DNA of 64,000 nt from Sporosarcina ureae (GTDB lineage: Bacteria > Bacillota > Bacilli > Bacillales_A > Planococcaceae), in the NCBI RefSeq assembly GCF_029267015.1, contig NZ_JARIEA010000073.1, forward strand, positions 1 through 64,000, written 5' to 3'. Positions 1 to 31,284 of the stretch are shown here, in pieces (within the stretch, counting starts at the first letter, position 1; every line of letters starts with the position of its first letter). The position numbers and the translations under genes were made by a program. The notes beneath the pieces are model-generated. The model had not been told where the DNA came from, ran no database searches, and saw only the letters and a program-made list of their open reading frames with translations.

Positions 1-119
1 GATCCTTACTGTCAGTATACATGAATGGGTTCTGACAAATCATCTGCTTTCTCACCTTCTGGAGGAATTTTCATAGATAAATATTAGCTGTGCTTTAGAC
101 AAATGTAAGTATTTTAAAA

Positions 120-183
120 GGTACCTGTGGGAGAAATTAACGTGAATGAATAAACATTCACGAAAGTTCCGTTCACAGGTACC
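120..183. repeat. 64-nt nested palindrome, copy 1 (terminator-like)
   Basis: The outer arms GGTACCTGTG and CACAGGTACC are perfectly complementary. A second perfect pair, CGTGAATG and CATTCACG, sits inside them. A second copy of the same length and architecture lies at 31077-31138. Read on the minus strand the hairpin is followed by a T-rich stretch (CCTTTTAAAA). Both copies lie downstream of a minus-strand gene, so a transcription-terminator role is likely. The shared sequence suggests a dispersed repeat family. Confidence 0.75.
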
Positions 184-184
184 C

Positions 185-309
185 TTTGCTATATCCTTCA
201 AGACGCGCTACGAGGTAAATGGCCAGTTTTTAACTGGTGAAAATCCTACCCGCTATATGATGCAATCTAGGCTCGGTCGCTCGACCGGATACCTGAAATA
301 AAATAAAAT
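185..309. other. GC-richer structured intergenic segment
   Basis: This short segment lies between the helicase stop codon and the 64-nt palindrome and is clearly richer in G+C than the AT-rich operon beside it. It holds two small hairpins, CCAGTT/AACTGG (223-237) and CGGTCG/CGACCG (274-287), and an enclosing GGTA/TACC pair. The phrase CTGGTGAAAATCC recalls conserved bits of group II intron RNA, but I cannot confirm an intron and no reverse transcriptase is present. Confidence 0.3.
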
Positions 310-3300
310 TCAGTTTGTTAGGTTATTTACACTTTCATATAAATTAGGTAAATCAAATTTAATTTCATATGGTGAAAAAAAATAAATATTAGATGTAGAA
401 TTTTTCTTTTCAATATTATTTTTCAAACCAATTAATTTTCCATTCTTTATCTTAACAAAAAGATGTTTGTTATGAATTTTAAATTCAGCATAATCCTTAC
501 CATGATGCAAATTAAAAGTTTCTTTTACTTTTCTTAAATATTGCTGTTCTTCCTCGACAGGAAACGTTTTCAACTTCCCATGTACTAGATAAGTTAATAA
601 TTCTAATCCAAGTGATCGATTTAACTGTTCATGCTTAGTTTGATTTTGATAATTACGTAAGCACTTATAACATGATGAATCACATTCGTTACTACATGCT
701 TCTAATACCTCAAATGTTTCTTCAATAATTTCAGATATTCTTTCTCCAGCTTCATATGAATAACCCGCCCCACCAGAAAGTGTATCAAATAAATATAAAT
801 CAACAAATCCTCCTTCTCCATCACGCTGATTAACACGGTAGCCTACAGTTAATTCTTGCGCGTCAATATCTAAGACTCGGCTGGAAGCAAGTATTAATCC
901 TTCCCCTAATGTACAAAGCGCATCACGCAGCCAAAGCTTATTAGCATGAAAATCCAAAGTAGACTTCATAGATAATCGAATTAATAATAGATCTGTTTTA
1001 AAAGAATTCCCTAAATAAACTTCATGTATTATTCCATAGCAACTTTTATTATTAGATCCAGATCGTTGAAATGGTTTGTCATGTTTATTTAAGTTGCCAA
1101 CATAGTTATTCTTTAATATAGGTTCAATAAAACCGCAATCTTCACACATGTTAAAACCACTTTCATTATCTGTACCACGATTAACTATAAGTAATTCTTC
1201 ATTTTCTCTGTGTACATATTCAATTAATTCTAGTTGATTATAAATTTTTGAATCAATATGATCATCTTTCAATATAAGCTGAGGTGAACTAGTATAACTA
1301 TACTCTTGTGATGAATCTCCTTTTCTTACTTCTCTGCCTTTCTGAGGTGAAAAACCCTTAGGTATTATATATGGTTTAATTACTAGCTCCTTTTTACAAT
1401 TTGGACATTTGTCAATCGCTTCTTCTTTTTCTAGTTTTTCAGTAAAATTACATTCATTACAGATTGCTACTTTTTTATCGTAAATATTAATATCTTGGGC
1501 TGGTGCTTCTAGATTTTTCGAGAATGGATTATATATTCCGCCAATACGATATGTTTTTTTATTTACAACAATCTGTCTACCTGGTGCATACTCACTTAAA
1601 GCACGATTTAGCTCCAGTTGGGGACGTTGTACTAGAATAACTTTATTGTCTTTATTACGCCCTTGAATATACAAACTCGATAGATTTTGTGGAAATGCAT
1701 ACGTAGGTAAAAAACCATAGTTAAACAAAAAATTAAGCAATAATTCATCAGGATGTTTTTCTGTTTGTTTTTCATTTTCTAGTTCATAATACTTTTTTAA
1801 GTTTTCTTCTACTTCGAATTCAAATTTATCTATTAAGTCTTGTTCAAGATTTTCCGCAGCTTCTTTTACAAGCTTCCATTTATCATCATCATTTTCAATG
1901 GATTGTTCTGGTATAATGGCAAAAAATTCAGGATTATTTTTAAACTTAATTTTTATCTGCTTTTGAACCCACTCATTAAAATCATTTAGCGAGAATACTG
2001 AATAACCTTTAAAAAAGTCAATAGTTGTACCTAAAGCCTCAGATATATCACTAGAACTTTCTCCATCGTTATCAGCACATTCATGGAAATATGTTTGGAT
2101 TAAAAGTGCATGAATATGTCTTTTAATTATTTTTTTGTTTTTTATATAAATAAGTGCCTCTCTCGCATCGCCACTAATAATTTGCTCTGGATGATTAAAA
2201 TAATAATTGTCATGCGGACCGTCTTGGGCATAGGTAACTACAGTAGAAATTGATGATCCACGTCGACCCGCACGACCTGCACGTTGTTGATAATTTTCAC
2301 GTTGTGGGGGAATATTTCTCATTCCAACTGCAGTTAGCGAGCCTATATCAATACCAACCTCCATGGTAGTTGTACAACTTAATATATCAACAATACCTAA
2401 ATCCTCATCTAATACAATATCTTGGAATGCCATTTCATATTGTTCAGTAGTTGCAAAAGCTATACTAGTATCTTTTTGTGATAATTGGGCTGTATGCTCT
2501 TCAACTGATATGTTTGTTATGTTTTCTCCTTTTAAAACTTGAGCTATCGGCGTTCGCCAATAGCCCTTTTCAGCGCGAAGTATATCGCTTTCAGGTAATA
2601 ATTTTATAATTGATAAAGAGTTACAATTAGGACAGCTTTCATTTACAATTACAGCGTTAATTTGTTTACACGCCCCACATTTATACCAAATATGGTTTAT
2701 ACCATCTTTAATCTTTAATTTATTAAGATCTAAAAAATACTTGTCAGATCTAGATCGACATAATTTTTCAAAGAGTAATTTAATCACTAACCGCGAATTT
2801 TCTTCTCCTACATAATTCCTGATAATTGAAAATAGTTGATCTGACACACTATTTATATTTCTTCCCCACTCGGAAGAATCACGATAAAACCCAAGAAGTT
2901 CTCTTCTTTCATATGTTTCTAAATCTATATCTACAGCTATATTATCTAACATTTCTTTAATAAATAAAATCGTTATATTTTCAAGATTTTCTTTACTTAT
3001 TAAATCATGAATATCTCTACTATAAACACGTTTTAAATTTGCCGGTACGACAATACCAGTTGTTGTATCATATATTGAATACCCCGGCTTTCCAATAACC
3101 TCCAGCATACGTAGTTTAAACTCTTTACGAATAGATATATCTATATCATCATCAGCTTCTTCAAATACTTGTATCAAATCTGGCCCATGTTCATTAAAAA
3201 ATTCTTTGACATAACTATCTTTGTCCCTAACCAAGTCTTTTCTCTCTTCCTGTGAAAATAAATACAATTTATTGGTATGCAAATAGTGTAAAATCGCGGG

Positions 3301-5631
3301 ATATATATGCTTACCTAACTTAGCTCGAATATCGCCTTTCTCAAATTCATATGACGCTTTTAATACCAATTGACGAACAGAATCTTTCTCTACTTCTTCA
3401 GGTATATCTCGTGCCAAGCGTGCAGCCTTTTGGCGACCATCTGAAAATATTAATACTTTACGTCCTTCATTAATGTTTTCTCTTTTCCCTTCGACTGGAG
3501 GTTGTGTTATAAACTGTTCACGAATTAAGTTCGCAAAAGGTTGCTCACCCTTTACCCGAAGATCACGAATATTAAATTTCGCATTCTTTAAACAACAAGG
3601 ACATTTTTCAAATGAAATAGCATCAGAATAAAATTTGTTGTGTTTACGACTTGATACTTTCTCTACTGATTTATAAACTTGTATAAATTCTTTATTCTTT
3701 TCGTTATCGGGCGGTATATTCTGTAAATAGCCTGTTTCAATATGAAGCCATAGTGGTGTTATAGTTTCACTCTTAACATTATCATGAGGTTTCTCAATTA
3801 ATAAATGTATTTCTCTTAATTTCTCACTTATAACACCGTGACCACTCTCATTCCATAAATATTTTGGAAATTCTCCCATTTCATTTACATAACCTCTAAT
3901 AAATGCAGATCCACAATATCTATGTGTTAATACTTCATATACTCTACCGTTACAATCACACGTCAATCGATTATCTTCATATAGTTTTCCCAGTGTTCCT
4001 ACTTCATTACAACTTGAACATTCGTGATTTATACAGGTATAAATTCCAGTGACACCCCTAAAAAACATATGAACTCTTGCTGGTAATAATACTCGTCCAT
4101 TTTTATTTGCTGTATTTGCTAGAAGTAGGAGATTACTTACAGCTTTCTCTGCACTCTCTTTAAGTTCTAGAGGATATAGTAATGAAATGATTTCATTGAA
4201 TGAAGTAGCATTTCCGCTTATTTTTTTAATGACTTTTTCTAAAGGTTCCCATCCATCTAAATTATCATATAAATATTGTGGAAATTCTGTAGCGTTAGAA
4301 GGCGGAGAAGTCCAATTGAGACTTTCAAAAAAAACGGCTAGTTTTTCAATGTTATCACTATAATCGCTTTTAATATTAATCAGGGCTTCTGTATTCATAT
4401 TCAATAAAATATTTAGATTGTTTTCTGTTGTATAAGTCGTTTTTCTATTTTCTTTTACACCCTTTATTAATTTGTATTCACGTTTATCAGGCTTCCCTGT
4501 TAATTGCTCCGCAAATTGAATTGCTCCTTTTTCATCATCTTCATTTCCTAAGCTCGCGGAAGTTAAAATACATTTCATTCGATTACGATCAATACCTAAT
4601 CGTGATTGTAAGCGCCTTATTAGTAACGCAACTTCTGCACCACCAGTACCTCTATACATATGTGCTTCATCCAAAATTAAAATAAATTGATTTTCGTCAC
4701 TTGCAGCTAACCAATCTTTTGTTTGTTTCCATATCGAACGTTCTATTGGTCGCATTAACATATATTCAAGCATAGAATAGTTAGTAACTAAGATATCAGG
4801 CGGGCAGTCTTGCATTTCATGTCTAGTAAATAGTTCCGAATCTGTTGATAACCCCTTATATCTACCTTTACTATTTTTCTTTGAATTCTTAAACGCATTT
4901 AAATCTTTTGCCGGCCACTTGCCTCTATCTTTCATTTGTTTTACTTCTTCAGGTTTATTATTTTCCAATTCGGAATAATAATTTAATATATCATTAAGTT
5001 GATATTTATCTTTATTTGGAGAATGTGATCCTGCATAAGGTGTCCGCGAAGTATACATACCGAATTGAGGATTTCTATCAGCAGCTTGAGAAAATAGTTT
5101 TTTAACCCTATCATCTCCAAATAATTTTCTTAACCTTGTCATTTGGTCACTAACTAATGCATTCATAGGATAGAGGATTAAAGCCCTAACAGATCTTTTT
5201 TCAAATTGAATTGGTCGTTCAACAGCTTCTATATACAATGTATTCAATATTGGATGTAAGAAAGACTCTGTTTTACCAGAACCAGTTCCAGTAGAAACAA
5301 TAATATCATTGTCTTCTTGTAAAAAAGCTTGCATCGCAATTTCCTGATGTAAATACGGCTTTGGATATACACCTACTGATTTTTCAAAACGAGACAATTT
5401 CATCATTAATTCTTTCGATATTTCTGGAATGTTCATACTTTCATATATATTGCCAGACTCGTATACAGGCGTAGACTCAATGTAGGGCTCTGTAGATAGT
5501 GTACCTTTTTTATTTAATAGTATTGTACGTTTTTTTTGAATACTACTTTCACTGATTGGATATTGTGTTTCAATATATTCAGCTAATTTATGATGTAGAC
5601 GATTAGCAATAAAAGTAATTGTGTAGTCCAA
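310..5631 (-). CDS. DruE-like giant DEAH helicase with C-terminal DUF1998/MZB zinc region
   Basis: A 1773-residue superfamily 2 helicase, probably the motor of an anti-phage defence system. Walker A STGTGSGKT is at residues 113-121, NYSMLEYMLMRP near 284, DEAH at 321-324, the TSASLG motif III further on, and the motif V/VI block MEVGIDIGS...QQRAGRAGRRG in the second RecA lobe. Several CxxC pairs follow (CNECNF...CPNC, CEDCG). Near the C-terminus the DUF1998/MZB-type zinc cluster ends in CDSSCYKCLRNYQNQ. The length and fused layout match DruE of Druantia; MrfA/YprA and DrmA are shorter. It is the last gene of a four-gene operon, starting with TTG 3 nt after the preceding stop, behind AAGGGAGAG. 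Family assignment is by motif and architecture only; the helicase call is secure, the Druantia call is inference. Confidence 0.88.
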   Translation of the reverse strand: MDYTITFIANRLHHKLAEYIETQYPISESSIQKKRTILLNKKGTLSTEPYIESTPVYESGNIYESMNIPEISKELMMKLSRFEKSVGVYPKPYLHQEIAMQAFLQEDNDIIVSTGTGSGKTESFLHPILNTLYIEAVERPIQFEKRSVRALILYPMNALVSDQMTRLRKLFGDDRVKKLFSQAADRNPQFGMYTSRTPYAGSHSPNKDKYQLNDILNYYSELENNKPEEVKQMKDRGKWPAKDLNAFKNSKKNSKGRYKGLSTDSELFTRHEMQDCPPDILVTNYSMLEYMLMRPIERSIWKQTKDWLAASDENQFILILDEAHMYRGTGGAEVALLIRRLQSRLGIDRNRMKCILTSASLGNEDDEKGAIQFAEQLTGKPDKREYKLIKGVKENRKTTYTTENNLNILLNMNTEALINIKSDYSDNIEKLAVFFESLNWTSPPSNATEFPQYLYDNLDGWEPLEKVIKKISGNATSFNEIISLLYPLELKESAEKAVSNLLLLANTANKNGRVLLPARVHMFFRGVTGIYTCINHECSSCNEVGTLGKLYEDNRLTCDCNGRVYEVLTHRYCGSAFIRGYVNEMGEFPKYLWNESGHGVISEKLREIHLLIEKPHDNVKSETITPLWLHIETGYLQNIPPDNEKNKEFIQVYKSVEKVSSRKHNKFYSDAISFEKCPCCLKNAKFNIRDLRVKGEQPFANLIREQFITQPPVEGKRENINEGRKVLIFSDGRQKAARLARDIPEEVEKDSVRQLVLKASYEFEKGDIRAKLGKHIYPAILHYLHTNKLYLFSQEERKDLVRDKDSYVKEFFNEHGPDLIQVFEEADDDIDISIRKEFKLRMLEVIGKPGYSIYDTTTGIVVPANLKRVYSRDIHDLISKENLENITILFIKEMLDNIAVDIDLETYERRELLGFYRDSSEWGRNINSVSDQLFSIIRNYVGEENSRLVIKLLFEKLCRSRSDKYFLDLNKLKIKDGINHIWYKCGACKQINAVIVNESCPNCNSLSIIKLLPESDILRAEKGYWRTPIAQVLKGENITNISVEEHTAQLSQKDTSIAFATTEQYEMAFQDIVLDEDLGIVDILSCTTTMEVGIDIGSLTAVGMRNIPPQRENYQQRAGRAGRRGSSISTVVTYAQDGPHDNYYFNHPEQIISGDAREALIYIKNKKIIKRHIHALLIQTYFHECADNDGESSSDISEALGTTIDFFKGYSVFSLNDFNEWVQKQIKIKFKNNPEFFAIIPEQSIENDDDKWKLVKEAAENLEQDLIDKFEFEVEENLKKYYELENEKQTEKHPDELLLNFLFNYGFLPTYAFPQNLSSLYIQGRNKDNKVILVQRPQLELNRALSEYAPGRQIVVNKKTYRIGGIYNPFSKNLEAPAQDINIYDKKVAICNECNFTEKLEKEEAIDKCPNCKKELVIKPYIIPKGFSPQKGREVRKGDSSQEYSYTSSPQLILKDDHIDSKIYNQLELIEYVHRENEELLIVNRGTDNESGFNMCEDCGFIEPILKNNYVGNLNKHDKPFQRSGSNNKSCYGIIHEVYLGNSFKTDLLLIRLSMKSTLDFHANKLWLRDALCTLGEGLILASSRVLDIDAQELTVGYRVNQRDGEGGFVDLYLFDTLSGGAGYSYEAGERISEIIEETFEVLEACSNECDSSCYKCLRNYQNQTKHEQLNRSLGLELLTYLVHGKLKTFPVEEEQQYLRKVKETFNLHHGKDYAEFKIHNKHLFVKIKNGKLIGLKNNIEKKNSTSNIYFFSPYEIKFDLPNLYESVNNLTN

Positions 5632-5634
5632 CTT

Positions 5635-6555
5635 TCATCTCTCCCTTCTTAATTCACAACGAGATAAAATATGCTCAACATTAAATAAATTGTGTGATTC
5701 AAATATATATTGTTTTGGCCATTTTGCAAATTCAGGTGTTGCAAATATTCTTAAAAGTAGATGTTCTTCTTTAGGAAGTGAACAATTAATATTTAATTTC
5801 ATATAGTTCCCTTCAATAGGAAATATATTAAAAGTAAATACTTTGCTTTTCTGATAATTCAACGCTAAATATAGGCGAATATAATGTGAATGACTCTCTA
5901 TTTCAGATGCTTTCCATTGAAAACCGTCCCAAGATGCGAAGAATTTATCAATTTTTTCAGAGTTTCTAAATTTTCTATTAAAAAATAAAATATAAAATTC
6001 ATTTTTAATTAAGTGATTATTTTTTTTTACTTTTAACGCTCTTGATTTAGTAAAATATATTATTTCTGATGGTTCTTCATCTTCTAGAGCTCCAAGTTTA
6101 TTCTCATATACTTTTAAAATTTGACTAAAAGTAGGTCTATGCAAGTATTCTTTATATGACAACGCAATACTCATAGGATTCTCAATACTAATTCCCATCC
6201 CAAGAGTCTTATCATTTGAATTTTGTTTTAATGAACTAATTTTAAAATAATTTCCATCTGGCATTAACACACATCTTTCTGGTGGTAATGAATAAAAACC
6301 GTTACCTATATTTAGAATTTCGCCTACATCAACAAGATAGTTAATAAACTGCATTTCTAAGCTTGGCTTTTCTTTATTAAAAAATGATTTAAAAATGATA
6401 TCTTCATTATTAAATAATCTAATCAATATCGTAGTTATTCTTTTTATATTTATTGATTCCGTTTGAAATTCTTCACAAAAACTAGCTAATAAATTTTTTG
6501 TATAGTTACTGTAATGATTAAGTTTTCTTTGCACAAGTAAATAATGGTCAATCAT
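5635..6555 (-). CDS. Unknown 306-aa protein of the helicase defence operon
   Basis: I do not recognise this family. No signal peptide, membrane segment or nucleotide-binding motif is visible, so a soluble cytoplasmic protein is likely. The first ~100 residues look helical and lead into YSLPPERCVLMPDGNYFKIS (about residues 84-105), a pattern that could be a winged-helix region followed by a beta hairpin. The rest is rich in aromatic and basic residues. Its start overlaps the upstream 653-aa gene by ATGA, and the helicase starts 3 nt after its stop. Such coupling suggests fixed stoichiometry and a role as an accessory or adaptor subunit of the helicase. That role is inferred from context only. 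Confidence 0.75.
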   Translation of the reverse strand: MIDHYLLVQRKLNHYSNYTKNLLASFCEEFQTESINIKRITTILIRLFNNEDIIFKSFFNKEKPSLEMQFINYLVDVGEILNIGNGFYSLPPERCVLMPDGNYFKISSLKQNSNDKTLGMGISIENPMSIALSYKEYLHRPTFSQILKVYENKLGALEDEEPSEIIYFTKSRALKVKKNNHLIKNEFYILFFNRKFRNSEKIDKFFASWDGFQWKASEIESHSHYIRLYLALNYQKSKVFTFNIFPIEGNYMKLNINCSLPKEEHLLLRIFATPEFAKWPKQYIFESHNLFNVEHILSRCELRRER

Positions 6556-8513
6556 ATATCTTTTCCATTACCTTTTGACATATAAAATGATTGTTTAAAT
6601 AATTTGTAACACCATTCAAATAACTCTTCTTCATTTGGAATAAAGGTTACCAACTGATTAAGCCAAACAATCAAATTTTTTGGTGACTTGAGATCTTCAT
6701 CCTTAACATCTTCAATCCAATGATTAAAACGTTTGTATATTCCGTTGCTGAATTCAGAGAATTCAAGATCATCAATCGACGTTAAATACAATTGACCAGT
6801 TACAATTTTACTTAAGTACTTTACAACAACTGGTTTTCTAATATAATCAGCAGATTTAATTAAAGGACTATTAGGCATTCTATCTATAAAGTCATCTGCA
6901 TCTTTCAAAGAATCCAATGTTATAATAATGATATTTGAATTAAGTTTCTCATCGCGCCATTTTTGTTCTTTGATATAGAGTGGCAATGAATAAAATGCAG
7001 AAGTTACATGAGGGTTACTAATAATCATTGCTTTTACTAGCTCTAACGAATTGAATTTTTCATTCTGAATATTTAAATTGTTTAAGTTAAATGTTTCTAT
7101 CTCTGGTATAATTGTTATGCTTTGTGATGAAGCGATACTCTTTGTAATACATTTAGCTAATATTAAACTATTTTCTCCATAAATTAAAATGGGCTCTTGT
7201 AATTTTAGTGACGTTAAAATCGTGGAAGATAGTTTTAATTCATTGTCTTTACCACCAAAGATCTTCAAATTTTCCTGTAATAATCTTTCAAAACCTATAA
7301 TATTGTATATGTATTCACTTTCATATGAATCACTGTTTGAAAACAAGGAGTTACTTAAAGTTTGTTCTTTAATTGAAGGTTTGATTGTTTGAGATTGCGG
7401 GAGAGAAGATGTTGCCAATTGTTCAGCATAAACTTCTGCAAACTCAAATTGCATATCATATATTTTCTTATTCATCGTCTCTTGTACAGTATTAAGCTGA
7501 AGATCAACAGTTCTTAGTCTTTCCTCTTTTATTTCAGCTTGTATTGTAAGATCATTTATATATTGTTCTAGTTTAGTAATATTTTGCAAAAGACTATTGT
7601 TTTGCAATATAAAATTTTCATACTGTTCATCAAATCTCTCTCGAACTTTTGTATCTATGACATTCCCACTTGCCTCTAAGTTCAATAATCTTTCGGTGAA
7701 AGTATCTTGAGTCTCTTTATCTAATGACTTATTAGATATCAAATTTATAGTTCTGTTAATTCTCTCTTTTATATGAGGTTCATATTCATTAACTTCGCTA
7801 TACCATTCTTTTAATCTGCTCGTCACTTTTCTTGTAATTTCACCAAATTCCTCATATTCTTTTAATTGCTTTAATACATCACTTATAACTCTTTGGTCAG
7901 TTGCTAAGTCAATCCATCCTTTAATATTATTGTCCTCTATTTTTTCTATACAGAAAAGTCGCTCCTGATTTTTAAAATGATCAAATACTCTTGTTATATT
8001 TAAATCTTGTTTGTAATAACCTACAAACTCATAATCTTTAACTATATATTTCTCTTTTTGCAATTCAAGTTTGACCGGGCCAATAATATAATCATCTGCT
8101 GTTCTGAAATAAATGAAATCAGATGGTATAAAAGAGAGTGATATACCTTTTAATAGATTTTCCGTTATTAAATGTTTGCTTTTCTCAATTGTTTCATCTA
8201 AATCTATCACTTCATATAAATCTAAATTCATAACATCTTTCTCAAGAGAATACTTCGAAAATTTAGGGTTTCCTTCTTCGAAATAAGTAGCCTCAATCAA
8301 TTCACATAGTTTAAAAACTTCAGATTGTGGAGCTGTATATGAATTTGGAACAAAGACTTTTCCTGAGTTTGGAAATACTGATAAAAGCGAACTTTCATCT
8401 ATAGGTTCTAATTCGCCGTTTATATATATTCCGTAGGGATATGCTCCAGCAGCATATATAATTCCAGCTTCTTTATTAACACTTACTCTAAATACTTTTA
8501 ATAATGCTATCAT
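6552..8513 (-). CDS. Coiled-coil protein with possible degenerate ATPase domain, defence operon
   Basis: A 653-residue soluble protein of unknown family. The N-terminal ~200 residues look like beta-rich domains. Residues ~215-370 are helical with a heptad-like coiled coil (NNSLLQNITKLEQYINDLTI). From about 405 a C-terminal domain has a hydrophobic strand followed by PILIYGENSLILAK (441-454), which sits where a P-loop would be but lacks the GxxxxGK[S/T] consensus. A later strand, NIIIITLDSLKD, resembles a Walker B strand. An inactive AAA-like fold is therefore possible but unproven. It overlaps both neighbours by ATGA (8510-8513 and 6552-6555), so it is translationally coupled. A scaffold that oligomerises through the coiled coil is a reasonable guess. 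Confidence 0.75.
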   Translation of the reverse strand: MIALLKVFRVSVNKEAGIIYAAGAYPYGIYINGELEPIDESSLLSVFPNSGKVFVPNSYTAPQSEVFKLCELIEATYFEEGNPKFSKYSLEKDVMNLDLYEVIDLDETIEKSKHLITENLLKGISLSFIPSDFIYFRTADDYIIGPVKLELQKEKYIVKDYEFVGYYKQDLNITRVFDHFKNQERLFCIEKIEDNNIKGWIDLATDQRVISDVLKQLKEYEEFGEITRKVTSRLKEWYSEVNEYEPHIKERINRTINLISNKSLDKETQDTFTERLLNLEASGNVIDTKVRERFDEQYENFILQNNSLLQNITKLEQYINDLTIQAEIKEERLRTVDLQLNTVQETMNKKIYDMQFEFAEVYAEQLATSSLPQSQTIKPSIKEQTLSNSLFSNSDSYESEYIYNIIGFERLLQENLKIFGGKDNELKLSSTILTSLKLQEPILIYGENSLILAKCITKSIASSQSITIIPEIETFNLNNLNIQNEKFNSLELVKAMIISNPHVTSAFYSLPLYIKEQKWRDEKLNSNIIIITLDSLKDADDFIDRMPNSPLIKSADYIRKPVVVKYLSKIVTGQLYLTSIDDLEFSEFSNGIYKRFNHWIEDVKDEDLKSPKNLIVWLNQLVTFIPNEEELFEWCYKLFKQSFYMSKGNGKDI

Positions 8514-10015
8514 TTATCTTCCTTCAACTCCCTGATATAATCAATTACTGGTTTTGGTATTTGGAAGCCATTATAATTAATTAGATATAACAATTTTCTT
8601 TTATTTTTATAATTACTATCAATCACCATTTGTTTTAATGAAATTAACTCCTGTATTGAATAAATGCCTTTAGGAAACATATTTACTCTTTCATAGTAAG
8701 ACAGTAATTTTTCATAATCCCATATGTTTTTTTTAATATTTTGTTTTGTAATTTTCAAACTCCAAATTGTTGGTATATCTATTCTGAAAGGTGCTTTTAA
8801 ACCACTTAAATCATTAGTGTTAACTTTATAATCAATTTCATCTTTAGAGCTAACGCAAAATGAATGGGTACTGCTAACTGAACATACATCTTTACAAACT
8901 ATTTCTCTTTTTTTATAAATAACTTCATTATCATTTATTTTAATAGAAAATAAAGATTTATTGGAATGCACCACTTCAGGAAGATATCGGAGAGTTATGA
9001 ACTCTGTTACTACTTGATCCATATAAATTATATAATCTCCTTGTCTAGAAAAATTAATTTCAACAACATTATTTTTATTTCCGAATAATTCAGAAATACT
9101 TGAATCTGGTGAAATTACAATAATTTTCTGATTAAAGGTAGATACTTTAATATTTGATATTTGTAATTCGACGAATGGTTCAGATACTTCATAAGTTGTT
9201 CCAATTTTCTTGAAATTCGAAGGTTTTATCAAGTCGATATGACATCTAACTTGTGTTAATTCATAATCCAAAGTTCTACCAAACCATTCTATTAAATCCT
9301 CCGAAAATTCTGTAGGCATTATTAAATCGTAAATATGGTAAACGGAATATTTAAGATAGCTTATAACATCTAAAGATTCATGGATGCTCAAATTATATTT
9401 AGTTACTACAAAAAATCTATCTGACAAAGTAATTTTTTGATATGGAATACTAGTAAATCTTCCTTGAATTTCCTTAAAAATTAGAGATCGGTTTTCAAAT
9501 GGCAGGAATCCTCCACTAATTTTTAAATCTAGATTATTTTCCTTTTCTAAGTTTGAACTAGTTAATGTGTATTTGTTAAGTAAAGGAACTTCTATTACAT
9601 TATTATTTCTACTTGGTAATAAATTCACTATATTGAATTCAAAGTCTACTATTTCTCTACAACTATACGAATAGTAACTTTTCTGGATCTGATTTAAAGT
9701 TATCTCTTTATTAATCAAAGGAAACTTCAAAAAGAATTTATAGTCTTTTGAATTTCTTTCTATGATTAATCTAACACCTTGGTTTGCAACTGTTTCCAAG
9801 TTATATACATTATCTATACTTAAACTATTAGAATATAGTTCGCACAATTCTTTTGAATAGTTCTTTTCACCTTTCATATGACGAAAATGTGATACCATTA
9901 CTTTTCCTGGATAAAAAATCACTTGACATCTACAATATGGACAGTAATACTTCAGTCCAGATACAGCGTTTTTCGCTTGAATTAATTGCTTTTCTAATGT
10001 ATAAGCAAAATCCAA
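8510..10015 (-). CDS. CoiA-like zinc-site protein, first gene of defence operon
   Basis: From the TTG start chosen here the protein has 501 residues. The N-terminus carries YYCPYCRCQV (C25, C28), then VSHFRHMKG (H43, H46) and C58 in ELCELYSNS. This CxxC...HFxH...C layout matches the N-terminal zinc region of competence protein CoiA-like proteins. The remaining ~440 residues are unlike anything I recognise. They include a second Cys-rich spot (CKDVCSVSSTHSFCVSS) and no clear nuclease motif by eye. The ORF track starts at GTG 10024, but AGAGGTG lies 6 nt before TTG 10015 and overlaps the GTG, so TTG is preferred. A promoter-like TATAAT lies ~50 nt upstream. A nucleic-acid sensing or nuclease role is inferred from the CoiA resemblance. 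Confidence 0.75.
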   Translation of the reverse strand: MDFAYTLEKQLIQAKNAVSGLKYYCPYCRCQVIFYPGKVMVSHFRHMKGEKNYSKELCELYSNSLSIDNVYNLETVANQGVRLIIERNSKDYKFFLKFPLINKEITLNQIQKSYYSYSCREIVDFEFNIVNLLPSRNNNVIEVPLLNKYTLTSSNLEKENNLDLKISGGFLPFENRSLIFKEIQGRFTSIPYQKITLSDRFFVVTKYNLSIHESLDVISYLKYSVYHIYDLIMPTEFSEDLIEWFGRTLDYELTQVRCHIDLIKPSNFKKIGTTYEVSEPFVELQISNIKVSTFNQKIIVISPDSSISELFGNKNNVVEINFSRQGDYIIYMDQVVTEFITLRYLPEVVHSNKSLFSIKINDNEVIYKKREIVCKDVCSVSSTHSFCVSSKDEIDYKVNTNDLSGLKAPFRIDIPTIWSLKITKQNIKKNIWDYEKLLSYYERVNMFPKGIYSIQELISLKQMVIDSNYKNKRKLLYLINYNGFQIPKPVIDYIRELKEDK

Positions 10016-10065
10016 TAAAATCACCTCTCACAATTCATGGTTATATGTGCCTGTATAAATATGTT

Positions 10066-10095
10066 ATTATAGAAAAATGAAATTTAAAAAAACAA
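10066..10095 (-). promoter_or_regulatory. Putative promoter of the defence operon
   Basis: On the minus strand a perfect TATAAT (10066-10071) is preceded 18 nt upstream by TTGTTT, a weak -35. It lies ~50 nt before the first gene of the operon in very AT-rich DNA. No operator-like palindrome was noticed. Confidence 0.45.
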
Positions 10096-10271
10096 AATTT
10101 ATGTATTTTTCTACTTAAGATCTATTTAGTTAAGTGATTATTAATACATATATTATGCTAAATTTCAATAAAAATACTCTTAAATCATATCTTCAGATTT
10201 GCTATATATTTTACTTTAATTTTAAATATTGTATGGTAGTTTCTAACATTATTCTTAGCAACTAATCTTTC

Positions 10272-10422
10272 TACTGGATAAAATACACTACCCTGCCACA
10301 CACACTAATCAGCACTGACCACAATCGGCTACCACTTTTTCATCAGTCCATATTCCCTACAACACATCCACCTTTACGATAATTATCCAGATCAGCATCA
10401 TATCCGTAATCTCCACACCCAT
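10272..10422 (-). pseudogene. Decayed phage holin (copy of 39698-39934)
   Basis: Reading the minus strand from ATG 10420-10422 gives GVEITDMMLIWIIIVKV, then, after a stop, GLMKKW(stop)PIV and ...GSVFYP. These match, in order, EITDMVVVPVIIGLV, GLPKKWCPIV and GVVYVFP of the intact holin at 39.7 kb. Several stops and a shift break it. It follows the remnant of the same neighbour gene as at the intact locus. Confidence 0.75.
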
Positions 10423-10432
10423 CTCTTGTCTA

Positions 10433-10672
10433 TTATCGAGCACGATAAATTAAACGCTTCTCTGCTTCCGCATGCTCTACATACTCCGAAAACGCGAGGA
10501 CTTTCGGCATTAACCAATCCGCTACGACCCGTCTCACGGAATTTTTTGGCTAAGTAAGTAGTACGCGTCTGCTAGTGATTTACTAAGGTAAAATGCAATC
10601 CAAACAGGTCGTTTGGATTCCACCACGAATAATTTAAATTTAAGGACATGTTTTGTTTGCAAATCGCCTTCA
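10433..10672 (-). pseudogene. Decayed copy of the 154-aa phage protein at 39953-40417
   Basis: In one minus-strand frame I read KLFVVESKRPVWIAFYLSKS followed by LADAYYLLSQ. The intact protein has KLFVVESKQPNWYAFYLSKK followed by EADAYRL. After frameshifts it continues FRETG and LMPKVLAFSEYVEHAEAEKRL, matching LMPNLLTFAES...VYVGHVEAGKRL. The N-terminal third is missing or unrecognisable. The match fixes the origin of this stretch as a second, older copy of the prophage module. Confidence 0.8.
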
Positions 10673-10919
10673 GAAGTGACGCATATTGGAAATCAGAACG
10701 AAGGCATCTCAGCCTAAAGCGATGTATGCGATAGCTCTCGTTTTCATTCTCTTCTAGAAAGTTCTCATATTGTAATCGGTACAATACTGATTTCTCTTTC
10801 ACATATCTCGCAAAGATATTCAACTTCCGCTGCAGGGTAGATCCTTCTCCAAGATCGTAAACGTCTTCTACAGGATACAGCTTATCTCCAGATGCTTGGA
10901 GCGCTTCGAATAAATCCAT
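10572..10919 (-). CDS. 115-aa ORF, probably a chimeric remnant
   Basis: The ORF starts MDLFEALQAS and has no convincing ribosome-binding site (GACGGGCT before ATG). Its last ~30 residues are an out-of-frame reading of the decayed phage gene at 10433-10672. The first ~85 residues look protein-like (helical, charged) and may be the stump of another phage gene that ran into the remnant. I recognise no family. It is probably not a functional gene. Confidence 0.25.
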   Translation of the reverse strand: MDLFEALQASGDKLYPVEDVYDLGEGSTLQRKLNIFARYVKEKSVLYRLQYENFLEENENESYRIHRFRLRCLRSDFQYASLLKAICKQNMSLNLNYSWWNPNDLFGLHFTLVNH

Positions 10920-11483
10920 AGCCCGTCGCTAGTTCTCTGTTAGTTATAAAGGTTTATCGTGAATTCTGAGAGAACTTTCGGTCACGCCGAATTTTAATTT
11001 AGATAGTTGTTTTTCATGAGTAAAAGAGTGAGATCCAAATTTTTAGGTTGGAGAAGTCGTTTTCCAAGAAATTAGTTGGTGTCATTTGGTTGGTTCGTTC
11101 CTTCTTTCCTTCTTTCTTAAAGGTAACTTCTTCAACATATTCATACTTTTTCATTTGAATAATTACCATTTTCCATTACAAGTATTCTTTATTTATAATT
11201 AATTAGCTTTTCGTTCGCATTGCGACCGCAGGAGCTCACTTTCTTCTTAATAGATCCTTCATTTCTTAGCTTGTACATATTTGATTCACTTGTTGTCTTG
11301 GTTTGATCAGCAGCGTTTCAGAAAGACAATCACCGCAGTAATAAATGCTTGTGCTATAAATGAAATCTCTTACCACTTGGGAATTTGACAGGAATCACTT
11401 GTCTTCTTTAAAAGAATACCAGGTCGTGATAGCATTCTGAATAATGTTGTGACTTGATGCTTCAAATCATGAAATATTGTTTC
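10920..11483. other. Intergenic stretch without recognisable genes
   Basis: No ORF with a ribosome-binding site and no strong hairpin was found. The sequence is moderately AT-rich with short T/C runs and may be further decayed phage DNA, but no match could be made by eye. Confidence 0.5.
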
Positions 11484-13179: not shown

Positions 13180-13604
13180 ATCCTACCCTCCTTCTACAAA
13201 TAGTAATTCAAGATTTTTTTATGATTATTCACCAATACACTTAAATATAATAAACAAATTAAAAATAGGATTCTAAGGATGAAACATACTTAAAAATACT
13301 ATTTGCGTTCATCTCTTCTCTCAAGAACTATGTTTTACAAGAAGAATTTGCAAAATCCCGCAATTGTAATTATATAATATTCCAACTAAACATAGAGCCT
13401 CCGCGAGGATGAGTAACAAGCCATAAATCCAGAGATACTAAGGTCTGGATTTGCCTGCGAAAGCTATTATCCACACCACTTCAAGTAAAGTTGCAACGCC
13501 GAGTTGGCTTGCAAAACTACGTACTTTCATTTTGCACTATACAAAACATATCAAACATGCTTTTTTCATTATATATTTTGTTACTCTGCATCCTCAGACT
13601 TACC
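13180..13604. other. Intergenic stretch with one hairpin
   Basis: A 9-bp perfect inverted repeat AAATCCAGA/TCTGGATTT (13425-13452) could be an old terminator for the decayed gene upstream of it on the minus strand, but there is no T-run. The 60-aa plus-strand ORF here has no ribosome-binding site and is not supported. Confidence 0.4.
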
Positions 13605-30979: not shown

Positions 30980-31076
30980 GAAGAATAAGGAAAAAGTTTC
31001 ATGGAAAGTATAGTTATTTTATATGAATTGTTCGGGGACCTGTCACCCTTAACTTAGTTCAGCACCATAGATAAAA

Positions 31077-31138
31077 GTACCTGTGCGAGAAGCTATTGTG
31101 AATGTTTAAACAGTCACGTTAGTTTCTCACACAGGTAC
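31077..31138. repeat. 64-nt nested palindrome, copy 2 (terminator-like)
   Basis: Outer arms GTACCTGTGCGAGAA and TTCTCACACAGGTAC pair with one mismatch. Inner GTGAATG/CAGTCAC pairs imperfectly. Spacing equals copy 1 at 120-183, and the flanking CCC is shared. On the minus strand TTTTATC follows, so it can terminate the YfcC-type gene. Confidence 0.75.
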
Positions 31139-31284
31139 CCATTACTCTATTGTTCGAAAAAACCACCTTGGAAATATATTTTTCCATGAAAACTCTTTAT
31201 TTTGATAAAAAAGACCAGACATATAAACAGAACGAATTGTCTTTGTGTCTAGCCTTTTCCAGCCTTCATACAACATACTTACTA

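What the first reader, a model, noticed from the sequence alone, without database searches (positions are those of the whole stretch)
310..10015. Four-gene Druantia-like helicase operon, possible undescribed defence system
Seen: four genes coupled by ATGA overlaps or a 3-nt gap, ending in a 1773-aa DEAH helicase with a DUF1998/MZB-type C-terminus. The other three proteins have no family that I know, apart from a CoiA-like zinc site. Known: DruE is a giant helicase of this type, and Druantia types differ in their accessory genes (DruABCD, DruMFG, DruH). Inference: none of the accessory sets I remember fits this trio, and no methylase is present, so this may be a new subtype or a separate system. 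Its AT-rich bases and neighbouring phage debris fit horizontal transfer.
Basis: partly seen in the sequence, partly recalled or inferred. Interest (0 to 1): 0.87.

Follow-up and report, generated by a model that had tools for sequence, protein, structure and literature searches.

The report
Druantia type I operon lacking DruA
The four genes are druB, druC, druD and druE of the known anti-phage system Druantia type I, so this is not a new system, although it belongs to a large and apparently undiscussed branch in which the usual first gene, druA, is always missing.

Summary
The four-gene operon is real: starts, ATGA overlaps and the 3-nt gap all check out. The "undescribed system" reading does not hold. 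PADLOC models name all four genes as Druantia type I: DruE1 (1982 bits, full length), DruD1 (E 5e-12), DruC1 (2e-48) and DruB1 (3e-39).

The one oddity is DruA, the fifth gene of published type I. It is absent from both sides of the operon and from the whole genome, and from 7 of 9 other Bacillota genomes that carry the operon. In an 87-row DruE tree, DruA is missing from all 49 loci of two fully supported clades (39 mostly Clostridia; 10 Bacilli including this one) and present in 30 of 38 loci of the third group. druBCDE looks like a self-standing core, with DruA lineage-specific.

The host is a Sporosarcina. The operon is an AT-rich island between a dehydrogenase gene and a DUF3885 remnant; close relatives show the empty site.

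Most likely mechanism (inferred): DruE, a YprA-family 3'-ssDNA helicase, acts on phage replication intermediates. DruB (CoiA-like zinc site), DruC (coiled coil plus degenerate AAA+-like domain) and DruD sense the phage or control DruE. No active nuclease was recognised in the operon.

The parts
8510..10015 (-). druB (start TTG 10015; alternative GTG 10024)
   Evidence: PADLOC DruB1 PDLC00004 E 2.9e-39 over residues 12-499; RBS AGAGGTG before TTG
9869..9958 (-). CoiA_N-like zinc site of DruB (C28, C31, H49, C61 invariant in 58 homologues, C61 just beyond the Pfam match)
   Evidence: Pfam PF25164 E 9.9e-7; alignment A2
6552..8513 (-). druC
   Evidence: PADLOC DruC1 PDLC00007 E 2.1e-48 over residues 45-643
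7416..7676 (-). predicted coiled coil of DruC (residues 280-366)
   Evidence: AlphaFold2 model, pLDDT mostly 70-94 there; coiled-coil hits in PDB sequences
6774..7316 (-). C-terminal AAA+-like domain of DruC without Walker A (residues 400-580)
   Evidence: Foldseek matches to AAA+ proteins, E 5e-4 to 1e-2; no GxxxxGK[ST] in any of 56 homologues
5635..6555 (-). druD
   Evidence: PADLOC DruD1 PDLC00011 E 4.9e-12 over residues 17-290
310..5631 (-). druE, giant YprA-family SF2 helicase (start TTG 5631, RBS GGGAGAG)
   Evidence: PADLOC DruE1 PDLC00013, 1982 bits, residues 2-1771 of 1773
5269..5292 (-). Walker A GTGSGKTE of DruE (residues 114-121 GTGSGKT region)
   Evidence: invariant columns T114-T121
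4660..4671 (-). DEAH box of DruE (residues 321-324)
   Evidence: invariant columns D321-H324
658..900 (-). MZB (DUF1998) zinc domain of DruE (residues 1578-1658)
   Evidence: Pfam PF09369 E 6.8e-11; C1646, C1650, C1654, C1657 invariant
184..10950 (.). approximate extent of the inserted island against relative G001 (right border near 13,589 against G485)
   Evidence: empty sites in G001 and G485; GC 27-33%
10572..11169 (-). DUF3885 gene remnant at the upstream border (an intact paralogue lies on contig C37 1325-1954)
   Evidence: Pfam PF13021 E 2.2e-12; 80% DNA match to C37
1..127 (.). exact overlap with the start of contig C37, which carries a 2-hydroxyacid dehydrogenase gene: the sequence downstream of druE
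   Evidence: order confirmed in relative G485

Best explanation
A Druantia type I anti-phage operon of the DruA-less kind (druB-druC-druD-druE), carried by a Sporosarcina on a small acquired island. Proposed mechanism: DruE, a YprA-family SF2 helicase with zinc modules, loads on 3' single-stranded DNA in phage replication or recombination intermediates and unwinds or remodels them, which blocks phage replication. DruB, DruC and DruD form the sensing and regulatory layer: DruB through its CoiA-like zinc site and beta domains, DruC as a coiled-coil scaffold with a dead AAA+-like domain. No active nuclease was recognised in the operon, so loss of phage DNA would depend on host nucleases (AddAB-like) or on an unrecognised domain. 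Shown: gene identities, order, intact DruE motifs, absence of DruA, clade-wide pattern, insertion site. Inferred: anti-phage activity of this copy, complex formation, the role of each accessory protein, the DNA target.
For: All four PADLOC type I models hit. Same B-C-D-E order in most of the 80 fetched loci. DruA absent genome-wide with a working positive control and absent beyond the contig edge. DruA-less clades with full support; 0 of 49 loci with DruA in them, 30 of 38 in the rest. DruE catalytic motifs intact. Neighbours of relatives are often restriction or other defence genes. Type III DruE has been shown to be a 3'-tail-loading dimeric helicase, and its authors propose DruE as the shared core with subtype-specific activators (PMC13192584). 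Type I DruE carries an inactivated Vsr nuclease domain (PMC12458937).
Against: No phage test of any DruA-less operon is known to me. DruB, DruC and DruD have no function by homology; the structure matches are weak (low TM). Type III results may not carry over to type I.
Confidence: 0.6

Rival explanations
1. A decayed Druantia type I system that lost DruA in this strain and no longer works.
For: DruA is part of the published five-gene type I system and is missing here.
Against: All four ORFs are intact with intact helicase motifs. The absence is shared by all 49 loci of two clades with long branches, and DruB, DruC and DruD are kept in nearly all of them (44 of 49 with all four genes), which is not what recent decay looks like.
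Confidence: 0.08
2. A separate, undescribed defence system built around a DruE-like helicase.
For: DruA is missing, and DruB, DruC and DruD are divergent from canonical members (10-16% identity to Pseudomonadota copies).
Against: All four proteins match type I models in PADLOC, and iterated profiles started from the window proteins reach the DruB, DruC and DruD of canonical druABCDE loci in the same order.
Confidence: 0.05
3. The operon mainly excludes incoming plasmid or transforming DNA rather than phage.
For: DruB has a CoiA_N zinc site, and CoiA is a competence protein acting on incoming DNA (general knowledge). YprA-family helicases act on ssDNA-containing DNA.
Against: No CoiA nuclease domain was found. 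Druantia is known for phage defence, and nothing here tests plasmid exclusion.
Confidence: 0.12

Closest known systems
Druantia type I (DruABCDE; Doron et al. 2018, as summarised in PMC13316683 and PMC7251935)
   Same: DruB, DruC, DruD and DruE by PADLOC models, in the same order, with a full-length DruE1 match
   Different: DruA missing from the operon and the genome; DruE in a separate, fully supported clade
Druantia type III (DruH-DruE; PMC13192584, PMC13316683)
   Same: A DruE helicase of the same family; solved DruE-type helicases match at 254-264 bits
   Different: No DruH. Type III DruE has an active PLD nuclease domain, whereas type I DruE carries an inactivated Vsr domain (PMC12458937)
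Druantia type II / type IV CoCoNuT (DruMFGE)
   Same: DruE helicase; an accessory protein with a coiled coil and an inactive P-loop NTPase is an analogy to DruC (my inference from PMC12458937)
   Different: No methylase DruM, no DruF or DruG hit among the four proteins
DISARM (DrmA/DrmB), Dpd (DpdJ), ARMADA
   Same: Related YprA-family helicases; weak cross-hits of DruE to DpdJ and DrmA models
   Different: At most 101 bits against 1982 for DruE1; no other DISARM or Dpd gene in the operon

Membership tests
Druantia (any type) | Giant DruE helicase with DEAD/DEAH core and DUF1998/MZB module | tested here: met
   DruE1 1982 bits, full length; DEAD, Helicase_C and MZB in Pfam; motifs invariant
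Druantia type I | DruB, DruC and DruD next to DruE in the order B-C-D-E | tested here: met
   DruB1 E 2.9e-39, DruC1 E 2.1e-48, DruD1 E 4.9e-12; order as in other loci
Druantia type I | DruA (DUF4338, PF14236), fifth gene of the published system | tested here: not met
   Absent genome-wide and beyond the contig edge; the same search finds it in G630 and G388
Druantia type I | Protection against phage | not testable with these tools
   Needs a plaque assay
Druantia type I | Gene rule of PADLOC or DefenseFinder for calling a complete system | not tested
Druantia types II, III, IV | DruM-DruF-DruG, DruH, or DruF-DruL partner genes | tested here: not met
   No such hits among the four proteins
DISARM / Dpd / BREX | Their helicase plus methylase or modification genes | tested here: not met
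   Only weak helicase cross-hits; no methylase in the operon

The most novel reading that the evidence does not exclude
DruA-less druBCDE is a distinct, fully functional subtype of Druantia I, the usual form in Bacilli and Clostridia. DruA would then be a lineage-specific addition (or an early loss), and the minimal type I machine would be B-C-D-E.
Probability: 0.6. Interest if true: 0.42.

Novelty: new variant of a known kind. Interest (0 to 1): 0.33.

Why it matters
Type I is described in the papers read as a five-gene system. If a large part of its natural diversity runs without DruA, then DruA cannot be the core effector, the minimal machine to purify is B-C-D-E, and annotation rules that demand DruA would miss or demote these loci. 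The S. highlanderae locus, where DruB is gone and the front of DruC is swapped while DruD and DruE are conserved, gives a natural domain swap for locating the sensor.

Tried and rejected
1) Undescribed system: rejected by PADLOC hits for all four genes. 2) DruA hidden beyond the contig edge: rejected by the genome-wide search with a positive control and by the contig C37 overlap plus a complete relative. The first DruA search had no positive control and was not relied on. 3) Another gene family replacing DruA: neighbour clustering found none shared across the DruA-less clades; some Clostridial subclades carry methylase or restriction genes next to the operon (5 to 7 loci each), the window's does not. 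4) Phage or plasmid carriage: no DruC match in plasmid or phage records, only distant DruE matches. 5) A single-sequence DruC search of genome contigs found nothing; replaced by the DruE alignment search. 7) PDB sequence searches with DruB, DruC and DruD profiles gave only coiled-coil or marginal hits. 8) Foldseek with DruB gave only generic Ig/FN3 beta-sandwich matches with low TM; used as a hint only. 9) The original Druantia paper is not held in the library.

Full report
Observation. The four ORFs, their overlaps (two of 4 nt, one gap of 3 nt) and the giant helicase are as described. The operon is AT-rich, 27-33% GC. The claim of phage debris nearby is not supported: the flanks hold S-layer (SLH) genes, a DUF3885 remnant and transporter genes, with no phage-specific hit.

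Identity. PADLOC profiles assign all four proteins to Druantia type I: DruE1 with 1982 bits over the full length, DruD1 E 4.9e-12, DruC1 E 2.1e-48, DruB1 E 2.9e-39. Pfam adds DEAD and MZB domains in DruE and CoiA_N in DruB. Helicases of other systems (DpdJ, DrmA, BrxHI) score at most 101 bits, so DISARM, Dpd and BREX are not supported. The other Druantia types are not supported because their partner genes are absent from the operon.

DruA. Published type I has five genes, DruABCDE (PMC13316683; PMC7251935). A genome-wide search with PF14236 finds no DruA here. The same search finds it in two of ten genomes with the operon (G630, just downstream of druE, and G388), so the test works; the other eight, this genome included, lack it genome-wide. 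The window is the start of contig C59, 309 bases beyond the druE stop, so I looked past the edge. Contig C37 shares an exact 127-bp overlap with the window start and carries a 2-hydroxyacid dehydrogenase gene. In the one-contig relative G485 the dehydrogenase and window 1-183 are contiguous, which supports that join.

Empty site. In G485, window 1-183 (91% identity) is followed about 50 bp later by window 13,590 onward. In G001 the dehydrogenase is followed directly by a DUF3885 fragment, an SLH gene and then window 15,635. Neither relative has a full-length DruE. The operon is therefore an insertion of about 10.8 kb (13.4 kb against G485); against G001 it holds only druBCDE. No integrase is among the ORFs within it.

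Distribution. A DruE alignment search brought 80 named loci. They show the genus: S. highlanderae and an uncultured Sporosarcina carry 72% and 50% identical DruE. Iterated profiles for A, B, C and D and a DruE tree of 87 rows give three groups: 39 loci, mostly Clostridia, none with DruA (25 of them with at least 2.5 kb on both sides); 10 Bacilli loci including the window, none with DruA; and 38 loci, mainly Pseudomonadota with other phyla and archaea, 30 with DruA. The DruA label needs 7 changes on the tree against about 25 for shuffled labels. The tree is a FastTree with local support values and its root is not inferred, so gain and loss cannot be told apart. In whole-genome samples, full-length type I DruE occurs in 6 of 400 genomes of the class and 3 of 399 of the phylum, the window's own genome counted in both.

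Accessory proteins. DruB: C28, C31, H49 and C61 are invariant in 58 homologues; the model (pLDDT 77) has a beta-sandwich-like middle with weak Ig/FN3 matches. DruC: a beta-rich front, an 87-residue coiled coil and a C-terminal fold whose best structural matches are AAA+ proteins (ClpC, LonP1, RavA, BrxL; E 5e-4 to 1e-2, low TM). None of 56 homologues keeps a Walker A motif, so a pseudo-ATPase is the best reading, with moderate confidence. In S. highlanderae DruB is absent and DruC has a different N-terminal half, with only its last 243 residues alike (48%), while DruD (46%) and DruE (72%) are kept. That suggests a modular front end for sensing and a fixed DruC-tail/DruD/DruE engine; this is inference.

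Mechanism. Type III DruE is a dimeric helicase that loads on 3' single-stranded DNA and forms higher-order assemblies; its authors propose DruE as the shared core with subtype-specific partners as activators (PMC13192584). Type I DruE carries only an inactivated Vsr nuclease domain (PMC12458937). No active nuclease was recognised in this operon, so I propose that DruE unwinds or remodels phage replication intermediates under control of DruB, DruC and DruD, and that destruction of phage DNA, if any, uses host nucleases. Only gene identities, motifs and distribution are shown; the rest is inferred.

Novelty. The system is known. The stable absence of DruA is the only unusual point. I found no paper in the searched library that discusses it, but most subscription papers, including the original description, are not held there. 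PADLOC's own DruB1 and DruD1 models already fit DruA-less Bacillota members closely (730 and 530 bits for G693), so its makers had such loci in hand. Because DruA, a stated part of type I, was tested and not found, it is filed as a DruA-less variant of Druantia type I and not as a canonical member.

Noticed in passing
L111 7557-15298 (Sporosarcina highlanderae; same as L029): druB is missing and DruC has an unrelated N-terminal half (507 aa in all), while the DruC tail, DruD and DruE are well conserved: a natural swap of the presumed front end. Two integrase genes lie upstream.
   Followed up: partly
L101, L106, L107, L112, L117, L119, L120: A Druantia-like layout with DruA, an uncharacterised protein of about 950-1000 aa, a DruD-like protein (PADLOC DruD1 in L112 and L119) and DruE, but no recognisable DruB or DruC. 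The large protein has no PADLOC hit; it may replace or fuse B and C.
   Followed up: partly
L065-L067, L074, L082 and others, just upstream of druB: Some Clostridial DruA-less operons are preceded by a cytosine methylase and a type II restriction enzyme.
   Followed up: partly
L099, L113, L115, and G693 and G413 (L035, L039), directly after druE: A D12-class adenine methylase (best PADLOC match PD-Lambda-5_B) follows druE in one subclade of DruA-less operons.
   Followed up: partly
L094, L098 (halophilic archaea): A divergent type with a 611-aa DruD-like protein and DruA on the opposite strand upstream.
   Followed up: no
L095, L100, L103: A DruE-DruD pair with a UvrD/GajB-like helicase gene between them and a further conserved gene of about 390 aa after druE.
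   Followed up: no
window 117-194 and 31073-31150: A short inverted repeat downstream of druE recurs at 31.1 kb (77-81%); perhaps a terminator or a small repeat element near which the assembly broke.
   Followed up: no
window 10572-11169 and G000 contig C37 1325-1954 (L127): Two DUF3885 copies flank the druBCDE island, one degraded and one intact (about 80% DNA identity), in a stretch that varies between close relatives.
   Followed up: partly
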